In this document: positions 57,856 through 64,000 of the stretch, piece by piece
Layout of the letters: each line of letters starts with the position of its first letter
How positions within the stretch are numbered: position 1 is the stretch's first letter
Notes under the pieces: generated by a model
Told to the model about the DNA's origin: nothing
Databases searched by the model: none
What the model saw: the letters and a program-made list of their open reading frames with translations, nothing else
Assembly (NCBI GenBank): GCA_028818755.1
Contig: JAPPNF010000176.1
Location: 1-64,000, forward strand
Source of the DNA: Deltaproteobacteria bacterium
Lineage (GTDB): Bacteria > Desulfobacterota > Binatia > UBA9968 > JAJDTQ01
Length of the DNA stretch: 64,000 bases
Direction of reading: 5' to 3'
Made by a program: the position numbers and the translations under genes

Positions 57856-59385
57856 ATGCGCAATATTCCGCAACTGTCGCCGCAGGATGAATACAACCAG
57901 GTGCTGGGCTCCAACACGCACCCCGCGGACTGGACCAATCCCACGCCGGCCGACCGCTACAACCTGGTTGTGATCGGCGCCGGCACGGCCGGGCTGGTGA
58001 CCGCGGCGGGCGCCGCCGGCCTGGGCGCCAAGGTGGCCCTCATCGAGCGCCACTACCTGGGCGGAGACTGCCTGAACGTGGGTTGCGTCCCGTCCAAGTG
58101 CATCATCCGCTCGTCACGCGTAGTGGCCGAGATCCGCGAAGCCGAGCTGTTCGGCATCGGCTGCCCGGACAACGTCCAGGTGGACTTCGCCGCCGTCATG
58201 GAACGCATGCGCCGGATCCGCTCCCACATCAGCCATCACGACTCGGTGAAACGCTTCTCCGACCTGGGAGTCGACGTGTTCCTGGGCGATGCCAGCTTCA
58301 CCGGCTCTAACACCGTGGAAGTGGACGGCCAATCCCTGCGCTTCAAGAAGGCGGTCATCGCCTCCGGCGCCCGGGCGGTGGCGCCGCATCCGCCCATCGA
58401 GGGGATCGAGGAGGCGGGCTACCTCACCAACGAAACCGTGTTCTCCCTCACCCAACGCCCGGAACGGCTGGCGGTCATCGGCGCCGGGCCCATCGGCTGC
58501 GAGCTGGCGCAGACCTTCCAGCGCCTGGGCTGCCAGGTGGTGCTGTTCCACAACGGCGACCACATCCTCAACCGCGAGGACGCCGACGCCGCGGACATCG
58601 TCCAACAGCAGTTCCTGCGGGAGGGCATTCAACTGGTGCTCAACAGCGCCCTTACCCGCGTGGCCACGGAAAACGGCCGCAAGGTGGTCCATTACGAGGC
58701 AGGCGGCAACGCGGACTCGGTGACCGTGGACGAGATCCTGGTGGGGGCCGGGCGCGCGCCCAACGTGGACGGCCTGAACCTCGAAGGCGTCGGCGTCGAG
58801 TTCCACCCGTTCCGCGGCGTAGTGGTCAACGACTACCTGCAGACCACCAACTCGCGCATCTTCGCGGGCGGCGACGTCTGCATGGACTGGAAGTTCACCC
58901 ACGCGGCCGACGCGGCCGCGCGCATCATCATCCAGAACGCCCTCTTCTACAAGAGCAAGAAGTTGAGCTCGCTGATCATGCCGTGGGCCACCTACACCGA
59001 CCCGGAGATCGCCCACGTGGGCATGTACGAGCGCGACGCCGAGAGCCAGGGCGTCGCCATCGACACCTACACGCGGGAGCTCAAGGAGGTGGACCGGGCG
59101 CTGGCCGACGGCGAGGAGGAGGGCTTCGTCAAGATCCACGTTGCGAAGGGCAAGGACAAGATCGTCGGCGGCACCATCGTCGCCCGGCACGCCGGCGAGA
59201 TGATCAGCGAGATCACCCTGGCCATGGCCGGGAAGGTCGGCCTCGGCACCATCGCCAACGTCATCCACCCCTACCCCACCCAGGCCGAAGCCATCAAGCA
59301 AACCGGCGATGCCTTCAACCGCACCCGGCTGACGCCCACGGTCAAGAAGATCTTCCAGCGCTGGCTGGCGTGGAACCGGCGGTAG
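57856..59385 (+). CDS. FAD-dependent pyridine-nucleotide-disulfide oxidoreductase (MerA/Lpd-like)
   Basis: The 509-aa flavoprotein has the FAD motif VVIGAGTAGLVTAAGAA, the redox disulfide GGDCLNVGCVPSKC (Cys-x4-Cys, about residues 74-79), an NAD-binding LAVIGAGPIGCELAQTF and the C-terminal active-site His/Glu in HPYPTQAEA. It resembles mercuric reductase but ends at WLAWNRR without the C-terminal Cys-Cys pair and without an NmerA domain, so mercury reduction is unlikely. The pairing with TVP38/TMEM64 is recurrent. Its physiological disulfide substrate is unknown. Confidence 0.85.
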   Translation: MRNIPQLSPQDEYNQVLGSNTHPADWTNPTPADRYNLVVIGAGTAGLVTAAGAAGLGAKVALIERHYLGGDCLNVGCVPSKCIIRSSRVVAEIREAELFGIGCPDNVQVDFAAVMERMRRIRSHISHHDSVKRFSDLGVDVFLGDASFTGSNTVEVDGQSLRFKKAVIASGARAVAPHPPIEGIEEAGYLTNETVFSLTQRPERLAVIGAGPIGCELAQTFQRLGCQVVLFHNGDHILNREDADAADIVQQQFLREGIQLVLNSALTRVATENGRKVVHYEAGGNADSVTVDEILVGAGRAPNVDGLNLEGVGVEFHPFRGVVVNDYLQTTNSRIFAGGDVCMDWKFTHAADAAARIIIQNALFYKSKKLSSLIMPWATYTDPEIAHVGMYERDAESQGVAIDTYTRELKEVDRALADGEEEGFVKIHVAKGKDKIVGGTIVARHAGEMISEITLAMAGKVGLGTIANVIHPYPTQAEAIKQTGDAFNRTRLTPTVKKIFQRWLAWNRR

Positions 59386-59459
59386 GAGAGCTGCAATGCC
59401 GCGTAGGTTTCCAGGACATGACGATAACCGTCGTTCCTCGGGCTGTCGGGGCCTTGCAG
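59386..59459. other. Junction between core genome and the IetAS unit
   Basis: This 74-bp gap separates the converging flavoprotein and subtilase genes. It contains no T-rich terminator and no tRNA or integrase scar. A short inverted pair AGCTGCAA (59389-59396) and TTGCAGCT (59454-59461) spans it, which may be chance. Confidence 0.4.
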
Positions 59460-62048
59460 CTACGCCTCCGACTGTGCTCGTACACGCGTAGCATGAAGGA
59501 TGGTCCTGACCTCATCGTAGATGTCTATGTCAAGTCCTGTGGCAACCTCCAACGTTGTGACAAGTGCGTATGGAACCTCAGCCTCCAGAGTCCCCGCATC
59601 GGCTCTACAACTCACCTGGATCTCGAGATTGGCACCTGCGACAAACACGCCCGCCTCGTCACCCTCAAGGATCTCGTGCTGTAACGTACCACGTTGAACC
59701 GCCTGCCAATCCGCTTGCCTCCGCCTGACGCGAAGCGCATCCATCGGAGGTGAGAACCAGAGATGTCCCCTACGCCAAGCTTGGTGTCGCGGGTTGACCG
59801 GAGACAACCAACCGAGCGTGATAGTAAGCCGTCGATGGCCACGCTCACCGCTTAGGGAGGGTGGCAATGGAAAGCGATGAACGTGAGATTCATCCCGTCT
59901 CAGCGTCCCTCCGCCAATAGCTGTTACACGTTGAGCTGTACATTCTCGAACTCGATCGGCGTCCACGGTGCCGTAACCGAGTAACCGCGTAACGTATTCT
60001 TTGAATTGTCGACTGTTGTTCTTGTCCTTCAGTATATTTGTCAGTACCGTACCCGCTTCTCCCCAGTCTGCACCATGCGCGACCAGCGCTTTCAGCCACA
60101 CAGCGCGGGGAAGGCTATCGATAATTTCGCCTCCCGGTTCATGACGAAGCTCCTCGGTAACGTTGTACAGGAAACCACAGGCACGACTCACCAGAGCTGT
60201 TGCGTTGCTTGTGCCCCTTGAGTAGCGCACGCCGTCTCTTTCACCGGGAACCCGCCCTGGGGAAGCAACCAACTGACCCGGCGCACCCGATTGGTCGTAG
60301 ATGTCGAAGCCTTCTCGATGGTCGCCGTTGACGGAGGTATCCCGCACAGCGACTCGCCCACCTGGTGCCAATATATCTGGTTTGATACCACGCCGATGCC
60401 CCATGCCTTGTGCGTTTATCGGGCTGGGAAGACCATCGGCGGTATATGGGTCGATCCATCCGGGCGGGAGTGGTCCCTTTGAAGCGTCATGATGAGCCGA
60501 TGCCACGGTTAGAACATTAACTGCCTCCGCTGGCGACAGGAGGCGTCTATGCCGAGCATCGGCCGCAACGGACCGAATTACTCGCTCCTGAACTCCGTCA
60601 AACAAAGACGGATCTGTTTGGGGTAACGCCGAGTAGTCAATCGCTCCAACGTGATTGCCTGCGCTGACGACGAATAGAACCTGATAACGCCAGGATAGCC
60701 AATCCAGCAAACGCGCCAAAGGACTCATCATATGATCGAATGGGCGATCCCGGACGCCAATTGACAAGTTTATGACAGCCACCTCCGGCGCGACAGCAGG
60801 TTCATCGCCTTCCATATCGAACAAACGACGAACGGCCCGGTGGACTAGGTCTACTACGAGTGTTCTTTCGGGTACCGTCTCGGCTTGATTGACCCAATCC
60901 CGTGAATCCTGTTGAAGTATCGGGCGGACATAGAGTGGCCTCGGAAAGACCTCGTCCTGCTGAGCCATATCGCCATGGAGAATAAGAGAGGCCATGGCCG
61001 TACCATGCCGACGCGTTGAAGCCGGATAATCCGATTCAAACCCGTCGGGATCGTCGACGATGAGGCGTCCCGTCAGCCGCCGATGTTCCTGTAAGGGAAG
61101 TCCATCCAACAGCGCCACCACAGGACGTCCCACAGCTTCTACGTCAGGCAACTCTTGTTCGTCTTGCGCTTGAACGAAGTCCGGCAACGAGGACGACATT
61201 TGCCCGCTAGCCCGAAAGAACTGGATTTGTTCGCACTGGACGAGACGTATTTGTCTGTCGATTGACTCAAGAAGAGGACGGATCTCGGCCACGGGCAAAC
61301 GGACCAGAAGTGCGTGATAGGCGATGTCCTCGATGTTCGACTCAGTGACAATCTGGCCACCTAGCGCTTCCACAAGCTCGGATACCTGATTCCGAGCGGT
61401 TTGGCGCTGTCCTGCAGCCTGCCGGGGCCAGAGTTCGATCTCGCAGGGCACGACTTCCTCGCCGTGTTCGACGCGTTCTCGCCAGTCGTCGAGTACCCCC
61501 GTCTCCTGAAGACGATCCAAGACTCCCCAGTGCCGCACGTCATGTAGTTGTTGAAACAGTTGGTTCCATTTCGCCAGACCGTCATCCAGCTTTTGTCCAG
61601 ATCGCCATCTCTCCCAAAGAGAAAGCATCTGTCTGAGAGCTTCCTGATCGACGAAGACCATGAATATACGGGCTCGAAGAGCCTTATTGGGTCTTGGTTC
61701 ACCGCTATCTGCCAAAGCGAAGAAGTCGTCGTCAGGGGGGATTTCCTCACCTTCGACCTCGGCAAGCCACTCCATCCCAGGAACCTTCTCCACAGCACGA
61801 ATGAAGTTCTCGACCGTACCTATGGTCTCCAAGACGACAACTTCCTCCGGGATAAGCTCCCGAGCCTCCATCTGAAGCCGTGTCCGTTTCTCCTCGAATG
61901 CCCGTTGCAATCGCTCAAACCGGGGAGACATTCTCTCAACCTGTCGCTCAAGGCTCGGGTGATGGAACTTACCACCGCCACCACCCCGTTTTCGGCGCGG
62001 TGAGGGCTGTCCGGGAGTCGGAAGAATCAGGAGAGGCCGTTCAGGCAT
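59460..62048 (-). CDS. ietS: Large S8 subtilisin-like protease, IetS type
   Basis: The 862-aa cytoplasmic protease (no signal peptide) has an N-terminal region starting ERPLLILPTPGQPSPRRKRG and a helical stretch with VVLETIGTVENFIRAVEKV. The S8 domain has triad Asp315 (VVALLDGLP), His348 (RRHGTAMASL), Ser614 (RGTSNATAL) and oxyanion Asn465 (SAGNH), followed by a long beta-rich C-terminal part. It starts at the ATG 62048, overlapping the AAA+ gene by 8 bp. This gene pair matches IetA/IetS, where the protease acts as toxin or effector and the ATPase as its antitoxin or regulator. Base composition is visibly lower in GC than the flanks. Confidence 0.82.
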   Translation of the reverse strand: MPERPLLILPTPGQPSPRRKRGGGGGKFHHPSLERQVERMSPRFERLQRAFEEKRTRLQMEARELIPEEVVVLETIGTVENFIRAVEKVPGMEWLAEVEGEEIPPDDDFFALADSGEPRPNKALRARIFMVFVDQEALRQMLSLWERWRSGQKLDDGLAKWNQLFQQLHDVRHWGVLDRLQETGVLDDWRERVEHGEEVVPCEIELWPRQAAGQRQTARNQVSELVEALGGQIVTESNIEDIAYHALLVRLPVAEIRPLLESIDRQIRLVQCEQIQFFRASGQMSSSLPDFVQAQDEQELPDVEAVGRPVVALLDGLPLQEHRRLTGRLIVDDPDGFESDYPASTRRHGTAMASLILHGDMAQQDEVFPRPLYVRPILQQDSRDWVNQAETVPERTLVVDLVHRAVRRLFDMEGDEPAVAPEVAVINLSIGVRDRPFDHMMSPLARLLDWLSWRYQVLFVVSAGNHVGAIDYSALPQTDPSLFDGVQERVIRSVAADARHRRLLSPAEAVNVLTVASAHHDASKGPLPPGWIDPYTADGLPSPINAQGMGHRRGIKPDILAPGGRVAVRDTSVNGDHREGFDIYDQSGAPGQLVASPGRVPGERDGVRYSRGTSNATALVSRACGFLYNVTEELRHEPGGEIIDSLPRAVWLKALVAHGADWGEAGTVLTNILKDKNNSRQFKEYVTRLLGYGTVDADRVRECTAQRVTAIGGGTLRRDESHVHRFPLPPSLSGERGHRRLTITLGWLSPVNPRHQAWRRGHLWFSPPMDALRVRRRQADWQAVQRGTLQHEILEGDEAGVFVAGANLEIQVSCRADAGTLEAEVPYALVTTLEVATGLDIDIYDEVRTILHATRVRAQSEA

Positions 62049-63051
62049 CTCTGCCCTCCGACGGCGCTTTACTGAGACTGGTAGCGGAGGGCTGGTTCCG
62101 CCACTGGTTGATCCGCTCGGCTACGATGGCATGCAAATCGCCTTCGGGAAGTGTCAGCACGTATTGACGCTGCACGTCGAGCGCGAACTGCTCCAGTTCA
62201 GAGAAGCTCAGTCCCTTGAGAACCTTCGCCAGGGCAGCCGGTTTATGCCCCAAACCCTCACCAAGACGCTTTTCGAAACGACAGAACCACTCTTCTGCCA
62301 GCGCAGAAGTGGGCGCCGGAAGGTTCAACCGCACCTGGAAGCGACGCCAAACGGCCCTGTCCAACAGTTCAGGGTGATTTGTCGCCGTTACGACCACGAC
62401 GTGACTTGGTAGGTCGTCGATCTGGAGCAGAAGGGAACTAACAACACGCTTGATTTCTCCTGTTTCGTGAATGTCGCCTCGCTCCTTTCCAACCACGTCG
62501 AACTCATCAAAGAACAAGACACATCGGCGCGTACGCACTTCGTCAAAGAGTCGCGAAAGTCTCACCGCAGTCTCTCCAAGGTAGCTGGCGATTACCGACT
62601 CGTAGCGCACGGCAAACAACGGAACGGCGAGCTCAGTGGCGAACACCTCGGCTAGCGAGGTCTTTCCATTTCCGGGCGGCCCGGTGAGAAGCACGCGGTG
62701 TCTAGGCTCGAGATTGTGCGCACGCAAGAGGTCGGCACGCTGGAACTCTTCGACCAACTCTGCGGCCGCCCTCGTTACGTTAGGGGGAAGAACAAGATCC
62801 CCTAACCGTCGTTCGGGAGATATCTGATGAAACGAATCAGTTGACGGTCCGTTGCGACCTACTGGAGATGTCGGGGCGTGAGAGTTCCCCGGGACACCCA
62901 CGTTGAGGTGTGCTGCCAAACGGTCAGCAAGGACATGGTGCTGCTTCGCGCGTTCTTCCGCAACAAGGGCTTCCAGAGACTTCCTGAATAAGGGGTGGTC
63001 TCCCTTGGCACCTGCGCGCACAAGGTCAAGCAACAAGTCAGCGCGGGCCAT
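62041..63051 (-). CDS. ietA: AAA+ ATPase, IetA type
   Basis: The 336-aa ATPase has an N-terminal helical region (ARADLLLDLVRAGAKGDHPL), a Ser/Pro linker, and one AAA+ module: Walker A GPPGNGKTS (residues 124-132), pore-loop segment SYLGET, Walker B CVLFFDEFD (177-185), sensor 1 in VTATN (Asn225) and arginine finger WRRF (236-237). It is the upstream gene of a two-gene operon with IetS. In the Ti plasmid this order has the ATPase as antitoxin, followed by the protease. Start at ATG 63051 with a strong AAGGAGG at 63061-63067, preferred to the further upstream frame. Confidence 0.82.
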   Translation of the reverse strand: MARADLLLDLVRAGAKGDHPLFRKSLEALVAEERAKQHHVLADRLAAHLNVGVPGNSHAPTSPVGRNGPSTDSFHQISPERRLGDLVLPPNVTRAAAELVEEFQRADLLRAHNLEPRHRVLLTGPPGNGKTSLAEVFATELAVPLFAVRYESVIASYLGETAVRLSRLFDEVRTRRCVLFFDEFDVVGKERGDIHETGEIKRVVSSLLLQIDDLPSHVVVVTATNHPELLDRAVWRRFQVRLNLPAPTSALAEEWFCRFEKRLGEGLGHKPAALAKVLKGLSFSELEQFALDVQRQYVLTLPEGDLHAIVAERINQWRNQPSATSLSKAPSEGRDA

Positions 63052-63119
63052 TTTGAGTAACCTCCTTCGAATGAGGGTGACCATTGCGAGATCAACCGTG
63101 TACCCCGCAGATCAGTCAT

Positions 63120-63150
63120 TGCCCCACCCAAGCTCCCGAAATGTGGGGCA
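63120..63150. promoter_or_regulatory. Inverted repeat upstream of the IetAS operon
   Basis: TGCCCCAC (63120-63127) and GTGGGGCA (63143-63150) form a perfect 8-bp inverted repeat with a 15-bp spacer, 69-99 bases upstream of the ietA start. It could be an operator for autoregulation, as in toxin-antitoxin units, or a leader hairpin. No convincing -35/-10 pair was found nearby. Confidence 0.45.
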
Positions 63151-63413
63151 GCCCCATCTCGATTTTCTTGGCAAACGCGCACCTTAATCCGCCGCTACGG
63201 TGATCAGCAGGCTGCAATCGATTCTCAAGTAGTGGTCCGATAACCCCGTTGAGGCCTCACCATCCACCTACCTCAGCGACAATCGACCAAACCTTGGCTA
63301 GCTACACGATAACAAACGACTCGACCGTTGTTTAGCCGTGTGCAGTTTGGCCCTTGGCATTCTCATGCTTCGCCAAGTCTGTCACCCTCAAACGGCTGAT
63401 CGCGTCCGATCGC
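63151..63413. other. Gene-poor stretch between ietA and the nitroreductase-like gene
   Basis: About 260 bp (360 bp counting to the ietA start) without a credible gene. The visible features are an imperfect hairpin between GGCTA (63296-63300) and TAGCC (63333-63337) with AAACGAC/GTTGTTT-like arms inside, and AT-rich patches. No tRNA, attachment site or transposase fragment was recognised. Confidence 0.4.
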
Positions 63414-64000
63414 CTATTTCGCCTTCAACCGCCGTCCCAGCGCAACCAGGAACATGACGCTCTTGCCGGCGGCGTGGGGGGAAAAGAAGCCGGTGACATC
63501 GTCGTCGAAGAAGGTGAGGCCCGAGGCGCCGAAGCCGTGAGCGTAGGCCGCCAGGTAGAGGCGGCCGGCGGTGACGGCGGCCTCCATCTGGGCCAGGCGG
63601 TAACCGCGGTTGCCGTAGCGCGCCAGCACCGGCTCGAGGTCGGCGAGGAAGTAGACGTTGACGCTGGCATCGTGGGGGATCTCCTGGCCCAGGCCGAGAA
63701 AGCCGGCCTCCCTGCGGAACTCCCCTTCCTTCAGCAGCTCCAGGCGCGCCCGTTCACGGTCCAGCGCATAGGTGCCGGGAGCCGTGCCGTCCACGTGGTT
63801 GACGATGAGGTAGAGCTGGTTGAGCGGCCGGGAACCGTCGGGGTCCGCGTCCGTGGCGACGCCGCGCGTGGCGTGGTGCAGCGCGTTGGACAACTGGGCG
63901 AAGGTGATGGCTTCGTGAGAGAAACGCCGGGTCGAGCCACGACGCACGATCACCTGCTCGATACTGTTCGTGGGGAGCGATTCCGCCGGGGCCATCTCCA
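63414..64000 (-). CDS. Nitroreductase/SagB-ThcOx-type protein, partial at the right edge
   Basis: The frame runs off the window edge on its 5-prime side. The visible 195 residues include VIVRRGSTRRFSHEAITFAQ (the RRS/T-RRF FMN-binding opening of SagB-type nitroreductases), LAQMEAAVTAGRLYLAAYAHG and FLVALGRRLK at the C-terminus. An internal ATG at 63995 exists, but its context (GGAG directly abutting) and the preceding open frame suggest this is the C-terminal half of a longer tandem nitroreductase. FMN-dependent dehydrogenation or reduction is likely; the substrate is unknown. Confidence 0.75.
   Translation of the reverse strand, partial: EMAPAESLPTNSIEQVIVRRGSTRRFSHEAITFAQLSNALHHATRGVATDADPDGSRPLNQLYLIVNHVDGTAPGTYALDRERARLELLKEGEFRREAGFLGLGQEIPHDASVNVYFLADLEPVLARYGNRGYRLAQMEAAVTAGRLYLAAYAHGFGASGLTFFDDDVTGFFSPHAAGKSVMFLVALGRRLKAK

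What the first reader, a model, noticed from the sequence alone, without database searches (positions are those of the whole stretch)
59460..63051. Two-gene AAA+ ATPase/subtilase unit matching IetAS toxin-antitoxin or defence systems
An upstream AAA+ gene (Walker A GPPGNGKT, Walker B FFDEFD) overlaps by 8 bp a large cytoplasmic S8 protease with a complete triad (Asp315, His348, Ser614). Established knowledge: ietA/ietS on the Agrobacterium Ti plasmid pTiC58 were reported as a toxin-antitoxin pair giving plasmid stability, and the pair is also listed among anti-phage systems. Here it sits in a chromosomal-looking context without a plasmid or prophage gene beside it, at a composition break. The trigger, the protease target and how the ATPase restrains it are not understood, so a divergent copy outside Rhizobiales would be informative.
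Basis: partly seen in the sequence, partly recalled or inferred. Interest (0 to 1): 0.75.

Follow-up and report, generated by a model that had tools for sequence, protein, structure and literature searches.

The report
Protease-ATPase defence pair, solo copy
The two genes are a genuine member of a known bacterial defence and toxin-antitoxin family (IetAS: a killer protease held in check by an ATPase), and its relatives often sit inside DNA-modification defence operons, which suggests a role as their emergency back-up.

Summary
In detail: ietA (62041-63051, -) overlaps ietS (59460-62048, -) by 8 bp, with intact Walker motifs and Asp315/His348/Ser614. PADLOC places both proteins in IetAS (1038.6 and 485.4 bits); both fall below NCBIfam's cut-offs, so this is a sister subfamily. 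In seven same-genus genomes the flanking genes are neighbours without the pair: a 4.04-kb, 57% GC insertion. Copies outside Rhizobiales are not rare, and others have tested some. Beyond the finding: (1) chromosomal relatives often lie inside modification-defence operons (BREX, DUF499/Hma-type, type I and III R-M): 20 of 35 loci counted against 1 of 16 hand-picked control stretches; the two closest relatives are of this kind. (2) IetS-type proteases share a short N-terminal motif (11 of 13 proteins not used to write it; 0.15 in shuffled N-termini), a candidate tethered inhibitor or IetA handle. Best reading: a latent suicide protease restrained by IetA, often carried as a back-up effector; the window copy stands alone. 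Trigger and target remain unknown.

The parts
62041..63051 (-). ietA-like gene, 336-aa AAA+ ATPase (predicted antitoxin/regulator)
   Evidence: PADLOC IetA PDLC04232 485.4 bits over 1-324; Pfam AAA; best solved chains are NSF and p97
59460..62048 (-). ietS-like gene, 862-aa S8 protease (predicted toxin/effector)
   Evidence: PADLOC IetS PDLC04233 1038.6 bits over 1-854; Pfam Peptidase_S8
62041..62048 (-). 8-bp gene overlap, suggesting translational coupling; the same -8 spacing is seen in L012, L013, L201, L202, L205, L206, L207 and L224
62013..62048 (-). codons 1-12 of ietS: conserved N-terminal motif MPERPLLILPTP, followed by a Gly/Arg-rich stretch
61104..61106 (-). catalytic Asp315
   Evidence: sequence; invariant
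61005..61007 (-). catalytic His348
   Evidence: sequence; invariant
60654..60656 (-). Asn465, putative oxyanion-hole residue
   Evidence: sequence; invariant; role recalled from the S8 family
60207..60209 (-). catalytic Ser614
   Evidence: sequence; invariant
62659..62682 (-). IetA Walker A (residues 124-131)
   Evidence: G124, P126, G127, G129, K130, T131 invariant in 33 rows
62572..62586 (-). IetA putative pore loop 1, SYLGE (residues 156-160)
   Evidence: L158 and G159 invariant, residue 157 Y/F/L in 33 rows; role recalled from classic AAA+ proteins
62497..62514 (-). IetA Walker B FFDEFD (residues 180-185)
   Evidence: D182 and E183 invariant in 33 rows
59386..63423 (.). 4.04-kb inserted stretch absent from the same place in seven same-genus genomes; ietAS are the only genes recognised in it
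57856..59385 (+). left flank gene, pyridine-nucleotide disulphide oxidoreductase, conserved neighbour
63414..63995 (-). right flank, C-terminal part of a nitroreductase-family gene (whole ORF 550 aa, L010:3415-5067), conserved neighbour

Best explanation
An IetAS module acquired by horizontal transfer. IetS is a cytoplasmic subtilase that is dangerous to its own cell. IetA, a probably ring-forming AAA+ ATPase encoded just upstream with overlapping reading frames, keeps it latent. When infection, or sabotage of a partner defence, disturbs IetA or its complex, IetS is released, cuts host or phage proteins and stops the infected cell. Shown here: family membership, gene pairing and order, intact active sites, insertion relative to sister genomes, and recurrent placement of relatives inside modification-defence operons. 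Shown by others for relatives: protease toxicity, neutralisation by the ATPase, and anti-phage activity of IetAS. Inferred: the latent-protease cycle in this copy, ring formation and pore loop, that the conserved N-terminal peptide of IetS is a tethered inhibitor or IetA handle, and the back-up role. The window copy stands alone, so here the likely roles are general abortive defence plus self-maintenance.
For: PADLOC IetS/IetA near full-length matches. Invariant D-H-S plus Asn, and Walker and WRRF residues. Pairing A then S: 29 of 30 rows, 28 of 29 loci, sets overlapping. Insertion with seven empty sites in the genus and foreign GC. Chromosomal relatives lie in a same-strand gene run with BREX, DUF499/Hma, type I or type III R-M genes in 20 of 35 loci counted, against 1 of 16 control stretches. 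L012 and L013, the closest relatives, lie beside DUF499/HmaC genes, and the window groups with them (100/99). Conserved IetS N-terminal motif, 11 of 13 proteins not used to write it. Passages from papers: toxin/antitoxin tests and anti-phage synergy experiments with IetAS.
Against: No experiment on this copy. No structure could be predicted. No other defence gene was recognised beside the window copy, and its genome gave no DUF499 or PglZ match, so the back-up reading cannot apply to it in cis. Plasmid relatives show no such embedding under the same labels (0 of 10; one, L068, has an annotated restriction endonuclease about 3.5 kb away), which fits plain addiction. The SGI1 pair gave no post-segregational killing from its own promoter. 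L201, L204, L223, L227 and L228 had no counted partner, and 10 of 16 loci of other subfamilies had none.
Confidence: 0.62

Rival explanations
1. A plain addiction module: ietAS persists because loss of the pair frees IetS and kills the cell, with no role against phage.
For: The pTiC58 pair is described as a plasmid stability system (cited in PMC5006074 and PMC8562856). Ten plasmid relatives lie among conjugation, mobilisation, TA, transposase or unrelated genes and carry none of the R-M/BREX labels used. SgiAT and mycoplasma pairs behave as TA.
Against: Many chromosomal relatives are packed inside BREX, DUF499 and R-M operons, and anti-phage synergy of IetAS is reported. A solo addiction module would not be expected to recur between modification and restriction genes.
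Confidence: 0.2
2. IetA and IetS form a split ATP-dependent protease: IetA unfolds substrates through its pore and feeds them to IetS, so the ATPase activates rather than restrains.
For: IetA keeps a Y/F/L-L-G pore-loop-like motif and arginine-finger residues; best solved chains are NSF and p97; pairing is near-obligate.
Against: In JCVI-syn3A, loss of the ATPase alone is lethal and loss of the protease alone is harmless. In SGI1 and mycoplasma pairs the ATPase neutralises the protease. Both roles could still hold at different times.
Confidence: 0.13
3. A neutral, decaying hitch-hiker without function in this genome.
For: Foreign composition, lone insertion; a same-genus genome (G001) keeps only a 74-codon IetS remnant, next to ORFs that look like transposases by eye.
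Against: Both frames are open and full length, with the invariant catalytic residues present and the -8 spacing shared with relatives.
Confidence: 0.05

Closest known systems
IetAS (PADLOC IetA PDLC04232 / IetS PDLC04233)
   Same: Near full-length profile matches for both proteins, same gene order, overlapping genes, D-H-S triad
   Different: Stand-alone intergenic insertion; below the NCBIfam curated cut-offs (IteS 74 of 900 bits, IteA 209 of 510 bits)
ietA/ietS of Ti plasmid pTiC58 and SgiAT of SGI1
   Same: AAA-ATPase and subtilase; ATPase named antitoxin, protease toxin in the SGI1 tests read
   Different: Those are on a plasmid and an integrative island; their sequences were not fetched here, so identity to them was not measured
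AAA-ATPase/subtilase pairs of mycoplasmas and JCVI-syn3A
   Same: Chromosomal pair, same order, protease toxic without ATPase
   Different: Protease 757 aa (M. mycoides subsp. capri) against 862 aa; no defence-operon context mentioned in the passages read
Back-up effectors of BREX and BREX-related systems (PMC12839542)
   Same: Genes inside or directly beside BREX and DUF499 core loci, proposed as auxiliary or suicidal back-ups
   Different: Part 1 of 2 of the section read lists nucleases; the words subtilisin, subtilase and IetA are absent from its main text
PrrC in the EcoprrI type I R-M locus (recalled)
   Same: A toxin nested in a type I R-M operon, woken by anti-restriction
   Different: PrrC is a tRNA nuclease; guarding by IetAS is untested
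Bacillus intracellular subtilisins with an inhibitory N-terminal LIPY/F extension (recalled)
   Same: Cytoplasmic subtilases; two intracellular serine protease entries rank 1st and 3rd among solved chains (7xr8, 7y6m, weak E 3e-5 and 4e-5)
   Different: No demonstrated inhibition by the IetS N-terminus; motif letters differ

Membership tests
IetAS | AAA+ protein of the IetA profile family | tested here: met
   PDLC04232 E 2e-146, residues 1-324
IetAS | S8 protease of the IetS profile family with complete catalytic residues | tested here: met
   PDLC04233 E 0, residues 1-854; D315, H348, N465, S614
IetAS | Adjacent genes, ietA upstream of ietS, same strand | tested here: met
   8-bp overlap; same order in relatives
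IetAS | Phage defence or toxin-antitoxin activity | not testable with these tools
   Known for relatives only
NCBIfam IteS/IteA equivalogs (NF042956, NF042959) | Score above the curated cut-off | tested here: not met
   74.4 of 900 and 209.4 of 510 bits; so not an equivalog, a sister subfamily
Back-up effector inside a modification-defence operon | Located in a gene run with BREX, DUF499 or R-M genes | tested here: not met
   None recognised beside the window copy. Met by 20 of 35 relatives counted
Prophage or plasmid gene | Phage or plasmid genes beside it, or phage homologues | tested here: not met
   No match in 50,697 phage records at E 1e-5; flanks are genes shared by the genus. Relatives do occur on 81 plasmid records and IMG/VR contigs
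Intracellular subtilisin | N-terminal extension that blocks the active site | not testable with these tools
   A conserved N-terminal motif exists; docking could not be modelled

The most novel reading that the evidence does not exclude
IetAS is a portable proteolytic fail-safe of DNA-modification defences. The ATPase-protease pair is slotted among the modification and restriction genes of at least four kinds of system (PglXI-type BREX, DUF499/Hma-type, type I and type III R-M). It stays latent while the partner machinery is intact and fires when a phage disables it. A conserved peptide at the extreme N-terminus of the protease is the built-in safety catch or the handle IetA holds. The window copy is a freed, stand-alone relative of such a fail-safe.
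Probability: 0.35. Interest if true: 0.8.

Novelty: new member of a known kind. Interest (0 to 1): 0.52.

Why it matters
IetAS is widely annotated, but three papers whose passages were read still call its mechanism unknown. If it recurs as a back-up inside R-M and BREX operons, the trigger question becomes concrete: test it with phages that carry or lack anti-restriction proteins. It would add a protease to a back-up class that the part of PMC12839542 read here describes as nucleases (section 35, part 1 of 2). The conserved N-terminal motif gives a small, assayable handle on how the protease is kept off. The window copy is a minimal two-gene version without partner genes, useful as the stand-alone comparison.

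Tried and rejected
Rejected. Prophage origin: no phage-record match. Transposon origin: no repeats pairing the two ends of the insert among those listed (14 bases or more), and no recombinase recognised in it (ORF list; the small overlapping ORFs were not searched against a library). Remnant of a larger defence operon in the window: no credible match of 23 labelled proteins to the insert's edges (best E 0.032). IetA with other effectors: of the eight IetA-like loci without an IetS profile hit, four (L110, L113, L117, L119) have an S8 gene next (read by eye) and four (L101, L111, L115, L116) show none. One search looked at 51 loci: L012, L013, all 21 and the best 28 of the 80; some are the same contig twice, and the 52 weaker AAA loci were not examined. 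In it L092, L093 and L097 hold only a piece of IetS, and the three loci with IetS but no IetA (L076, L079, L088) start within 364 bases of a contig end.

Results against my reading, and limits. One search's 30 rows include the window's own copy (L023) and one place twice (L024, L032). One search's 29 loci are those's 31 places other than the window's own and G098:C444, for which no locus was given; 15 of them repeat genomes already. N-terminal motif: the pattern was written after seeing the N-termini printed; the 13 test proteins are homologues of one another, so the binomial value is not a true probability; in the 43 proteins of the tree set the pattern fits 32, the 11 misses showing a near variant with the second hydrophobic residue shifted. 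Embedding counts rest on longest-ORF gene calls, blastp labels (E 1e-5) taken from PADLOC hits in the same data, and gaps of at most 200 bases. Counted as embedded: 7 of 9 (L201-L209), 7 of 10 (L223-L231, L234), 6 of 16 (L235-L250). L238 is weak (DUF499 label E 4e-13, three genes away). L205 and L206 are near-identical. A Schlafen label on a 147-aa ORF beside L201 was not counted. L242 and L247 have R-M genes nearby on the other strand and were not counted. Left out: G363 (short contig) of the first set; L216, L232 and L233 (contig ends) of the second; G436, G103, G370 and G098:C444 of the third; and L012 and L013, chosen by similarity, which would make 22 of 37. Control stretches were picked by me at round coordinates, not at random; any label anywhere in the 16 kb counted. 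The positive one (L264) overlaps the end of the BREX locus of L224. Some BREX, HsdM and HsdS labels come only from blastp to labelled relatives, not from PADLOC directly. Viral-contig neighbours (L071, L072, L073, L087) were not counted. The BREX type was not formally assigned; PglXI is called Type-3 specific (as BrxXI) in PMC12839542. On the tree, L072 and L087 were labelled embedded; the label needs 10 changes, at least 8 on starred branches, and is somewhat clustered (8 of 500 shuffles as low); L235 and L073 are long branches.

Structure prediction of both proteins was planned to test N-terminal docking and was not available. Searches of the paper library for IetAS with BREX or R-M nesting gave no description in what I read; not every listed paper was opened, and the library holds no bioRxiv and few subscription papers.
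Full report
1. What is there. The window holds an 862-aa S8 protease gene (59460-62048, -) and, upstream, a 336-aa AAA+ gene (62041-63051, -), overlapping by 8 bp. Pfam finds Peptidase_S8 and AAA. PADLOC gives IetS PDLC04233 1038.6 bits and IetA PDLC04232 485.4 bits, almost full length. NCBIfam's IteS/IteA models match but far below their cut-offs (74.4 of 900, 209.4 of 510). The pair therefore belongs to IetAS but to a different subfamily from the NCBIfam reference proteins. No solved chain matches the protease alone at E 0.1, nor a 20-row profile at E 0.001; a 24-row profile finds weak hits with intracellular serine proteases 7xr8 (E 3e-5) first and 7y6m third. The ATPase resembles NSF and p97.

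2. Catalytic equipment. Asp315, His348, Asn465 and Ser614 are invariant in 20 and 24 rows. IetA keeps Walker A, Walker B, the WRRF stretch (arginine fingers, recalled) and a Y/F/L-L-G pore-loop-like motif in 33 rows. Ring formation and a pulling pore are inferences from the family.

3. How it arrived. Of nine genomes of the genus, the window's own included, eight hold the left flank gene and eight the right; the ninth, 76% complete, lacks both. In the seven others the two genes are neighbours with 23, 83, 175, 280, 952, 952 and 1035 bases between them, the three long gaps carrying an ORF of about 294 aa that looks like an outer-membrane protein by eye. None of the gaps holds ietAS. Similarity to the window stops at about 59385 and resumes at about 63423, so the insert is about 4.04 kb, with GC 0.569 against 0.668. 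No recombinase was recognised in it and no paired end repeats were listed. Of the 57 other genomes one has an IetS trace: G001, a 74-codon remnant near transposase-like ORFs, at another place.

4. Pairing. In 29 of 30 rows and 28 of 29 loci the two genes lie next to each other in the order A then S; the sets overlap. The exceptions are a contig that begins 120 bases before ietS (L025) and a broken ietA (L197). Of 51 loci examined, four show an IetA-like gene without a protease next to it.

5. Distribution. IetS of this profile occurs in 17 of 395 genomes of the phylum, the own one included, in 15 of 389 of one class at a stricter cut-off, two of them seen before, on 81 plasmid records and on 21 IMG/VR loci, and in no phage record at E 1e-5. 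The two named relatives found by a close search are a Gammaproteobacteria MAG (70% identity) and an Acidobacteria MAG (62%).

6. Context of relatives. Both of these have a DUF499/HmaC gene upstream, one with a pAgo-like gene before it and one with an OLD-like ATPase between. Nine loci from the phylum draw were then read with wide flanks. Four are BREX loci of the PglXI kind: pglXI, ietA, ietS, brxHI, with brxC seen upstream in three and pglZ and brxA downstream in three; in L202 brxC was not seen in the stretch and L205 is cut by its contig end. One is PglZ-like (weak), brxL, ietA, ietS. One is a type I R-M operon: hsdM, PDC-S02, hsdS, ietA, ietS, hsdR. One is type III R-M: mod, ietA, ietS, res. 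Two had no counted neighbour. Ten further loci from the class draw served as a test: seven fit (one BREX-like with brxHI-like, pglZ and brxA; hsdM-ietAS-hsdS; HmaB-DUF499-ietAS-helicase; three type III R-M loci; hsdM-ietAS at a contig end). Of sixteen loci of other subfamilies, six fit. Together 20 of 35, against 1 of 16 control stretches, that one overlapping a BREX locus end (one-sided Fisher p 0.0005). For the third set alone the difference is slight (6 of 16, p 0.04). Gaps to the counted neighbours range from -40 to +142 bases and many are within 10. Ten plasmid loci carry none of these labels, though one has an annotated restriction endonuclease some 3.5 kb away.

7. Tree. On a 43-row IetS tree the window is sister to L012, then L013 (both forks 100/99), with L207, L227 and L228 next. 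Embedded and solo copies are mixed, with at least 8 changes on starred branches. L208 (type I R-M) and L226 (DUF499) are sisters (98/95), so the module has changed host operon. The window copy is best read as a stand-alone relative of DUF499-linked copies; which state was ancestral is not shown.

8. A conserved N-terminal peptide. IetS proteins only about 20% identical to the window's begin with a similar short stretch (MPERPLLILPTP here; HLLL, HIFL, PLLF elsewhere), then a flexible-looking linker. A pattern [HP]-hydrophobic-x-hydrophobic, written after seeing the N-termini, was found in the first 20 residues of 11 of 13 other proteins; shuffled N-termini give 0.152 and internal windows 0.070. 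In the 43-row set it fits 32, the misses being a shifted variant. Since cytoplasmic subtilases of Bacillus are held off by an N-terminal extension (recalled), the motif may be a tethered inhibitor; it may equally be the part IetA grips. Neither was tested.

9. Mechanism and literature (passages seen unless said otherwise). In SGI1, S025 (subtilase) is toxic and S026 (ATPase) neutralises it in E. coli, without post-segregational killing from the native promoter (PMC5006074). In JCVI-syn3A, loss of the ATPase alone is lethal and loss of both is viable (PMC6755753). Mycoplasma pairs were confirmed as TA (PMC8562856). Experiments showing anti-phage synergy of Zorya II with IetAS are described in PMC13427033. 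Three papers call the IetAS mechanism unknown. PMC12839542 describes back-up effectors of BREX and DUF499 systems; the part of section 35 read (1 of 2) lists nucleases, and its main text does not contain subtilisin, subtilase or IetA. The founding paper (J Bacteriol 2009) is not held. The discovery of IetAS as a defence system in 2020 is recalled.

10. Verdict. The finding is real and correctly named. The window copy is a new member of a known kind, standing alone in an inserted stretch. The larger pattern among relatives, a protease-ATPase pair recurrently placed inside modification-defence operons, was found here by comparison and is the part worth following.

Noticed in passing
L205 and L206: Nearly identical IetS proteins (tree branches 0 and 0.0022) inside BREX operons in genomes of two different families, suggesting recent transfer of the whole operon.
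   Followed up: partly
L014 / L060 (G001): A 74-codon IetS 3' remnant near transposase-like ORFs in a same-genus genome, at a place different from the window's site; no IetA trace in the 13 kb searched.
   Followed up: partly
window 59386-63423 and L053-L059: The spot between the oxidoreductase and the nitroreductase-family gene is variable in the genus: 23 to 1035 bases, three genomes with an outer-membrane-protein-like ORF (by eye), two with self-complementary repeat sequence, one with ietAS.
   Followed up: partly
G000:C158:4738-6693 and G000:C23:5848-7800: The window's genome holds two strong type I R-M methyltransferase matches of near-equal score elsewhere; neither contig has an IetA match.
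   Followed up: no
L202:1067-2968: A Schlafen/AlbA_2-domain protein lies directly upstream of pglXI-ietA-ietS in one BREX locus, so two putative back-up modules may be stacked.
   Followed up: no
L068 (Klebsiella michiganensis plasmid): ietA and ietS are both split into several short frames, a decayed copy on a plasmid typed as conjugative; described only.
   Followed up: no
window 62041-62048 and relatives: The -8 bp ietA/ietS spacing is shared by several distant chromosomal relatives, while rhizobial plasmid copies overlap by up to about 110 bases if the first ietS start is taken.
   Followed up: partly
NCBIfam NF042956 and NF042959: NCBIfam spells the names IteS and IteA, while PADLOC and the papers read use IetS and IetA.
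   Followed up: no
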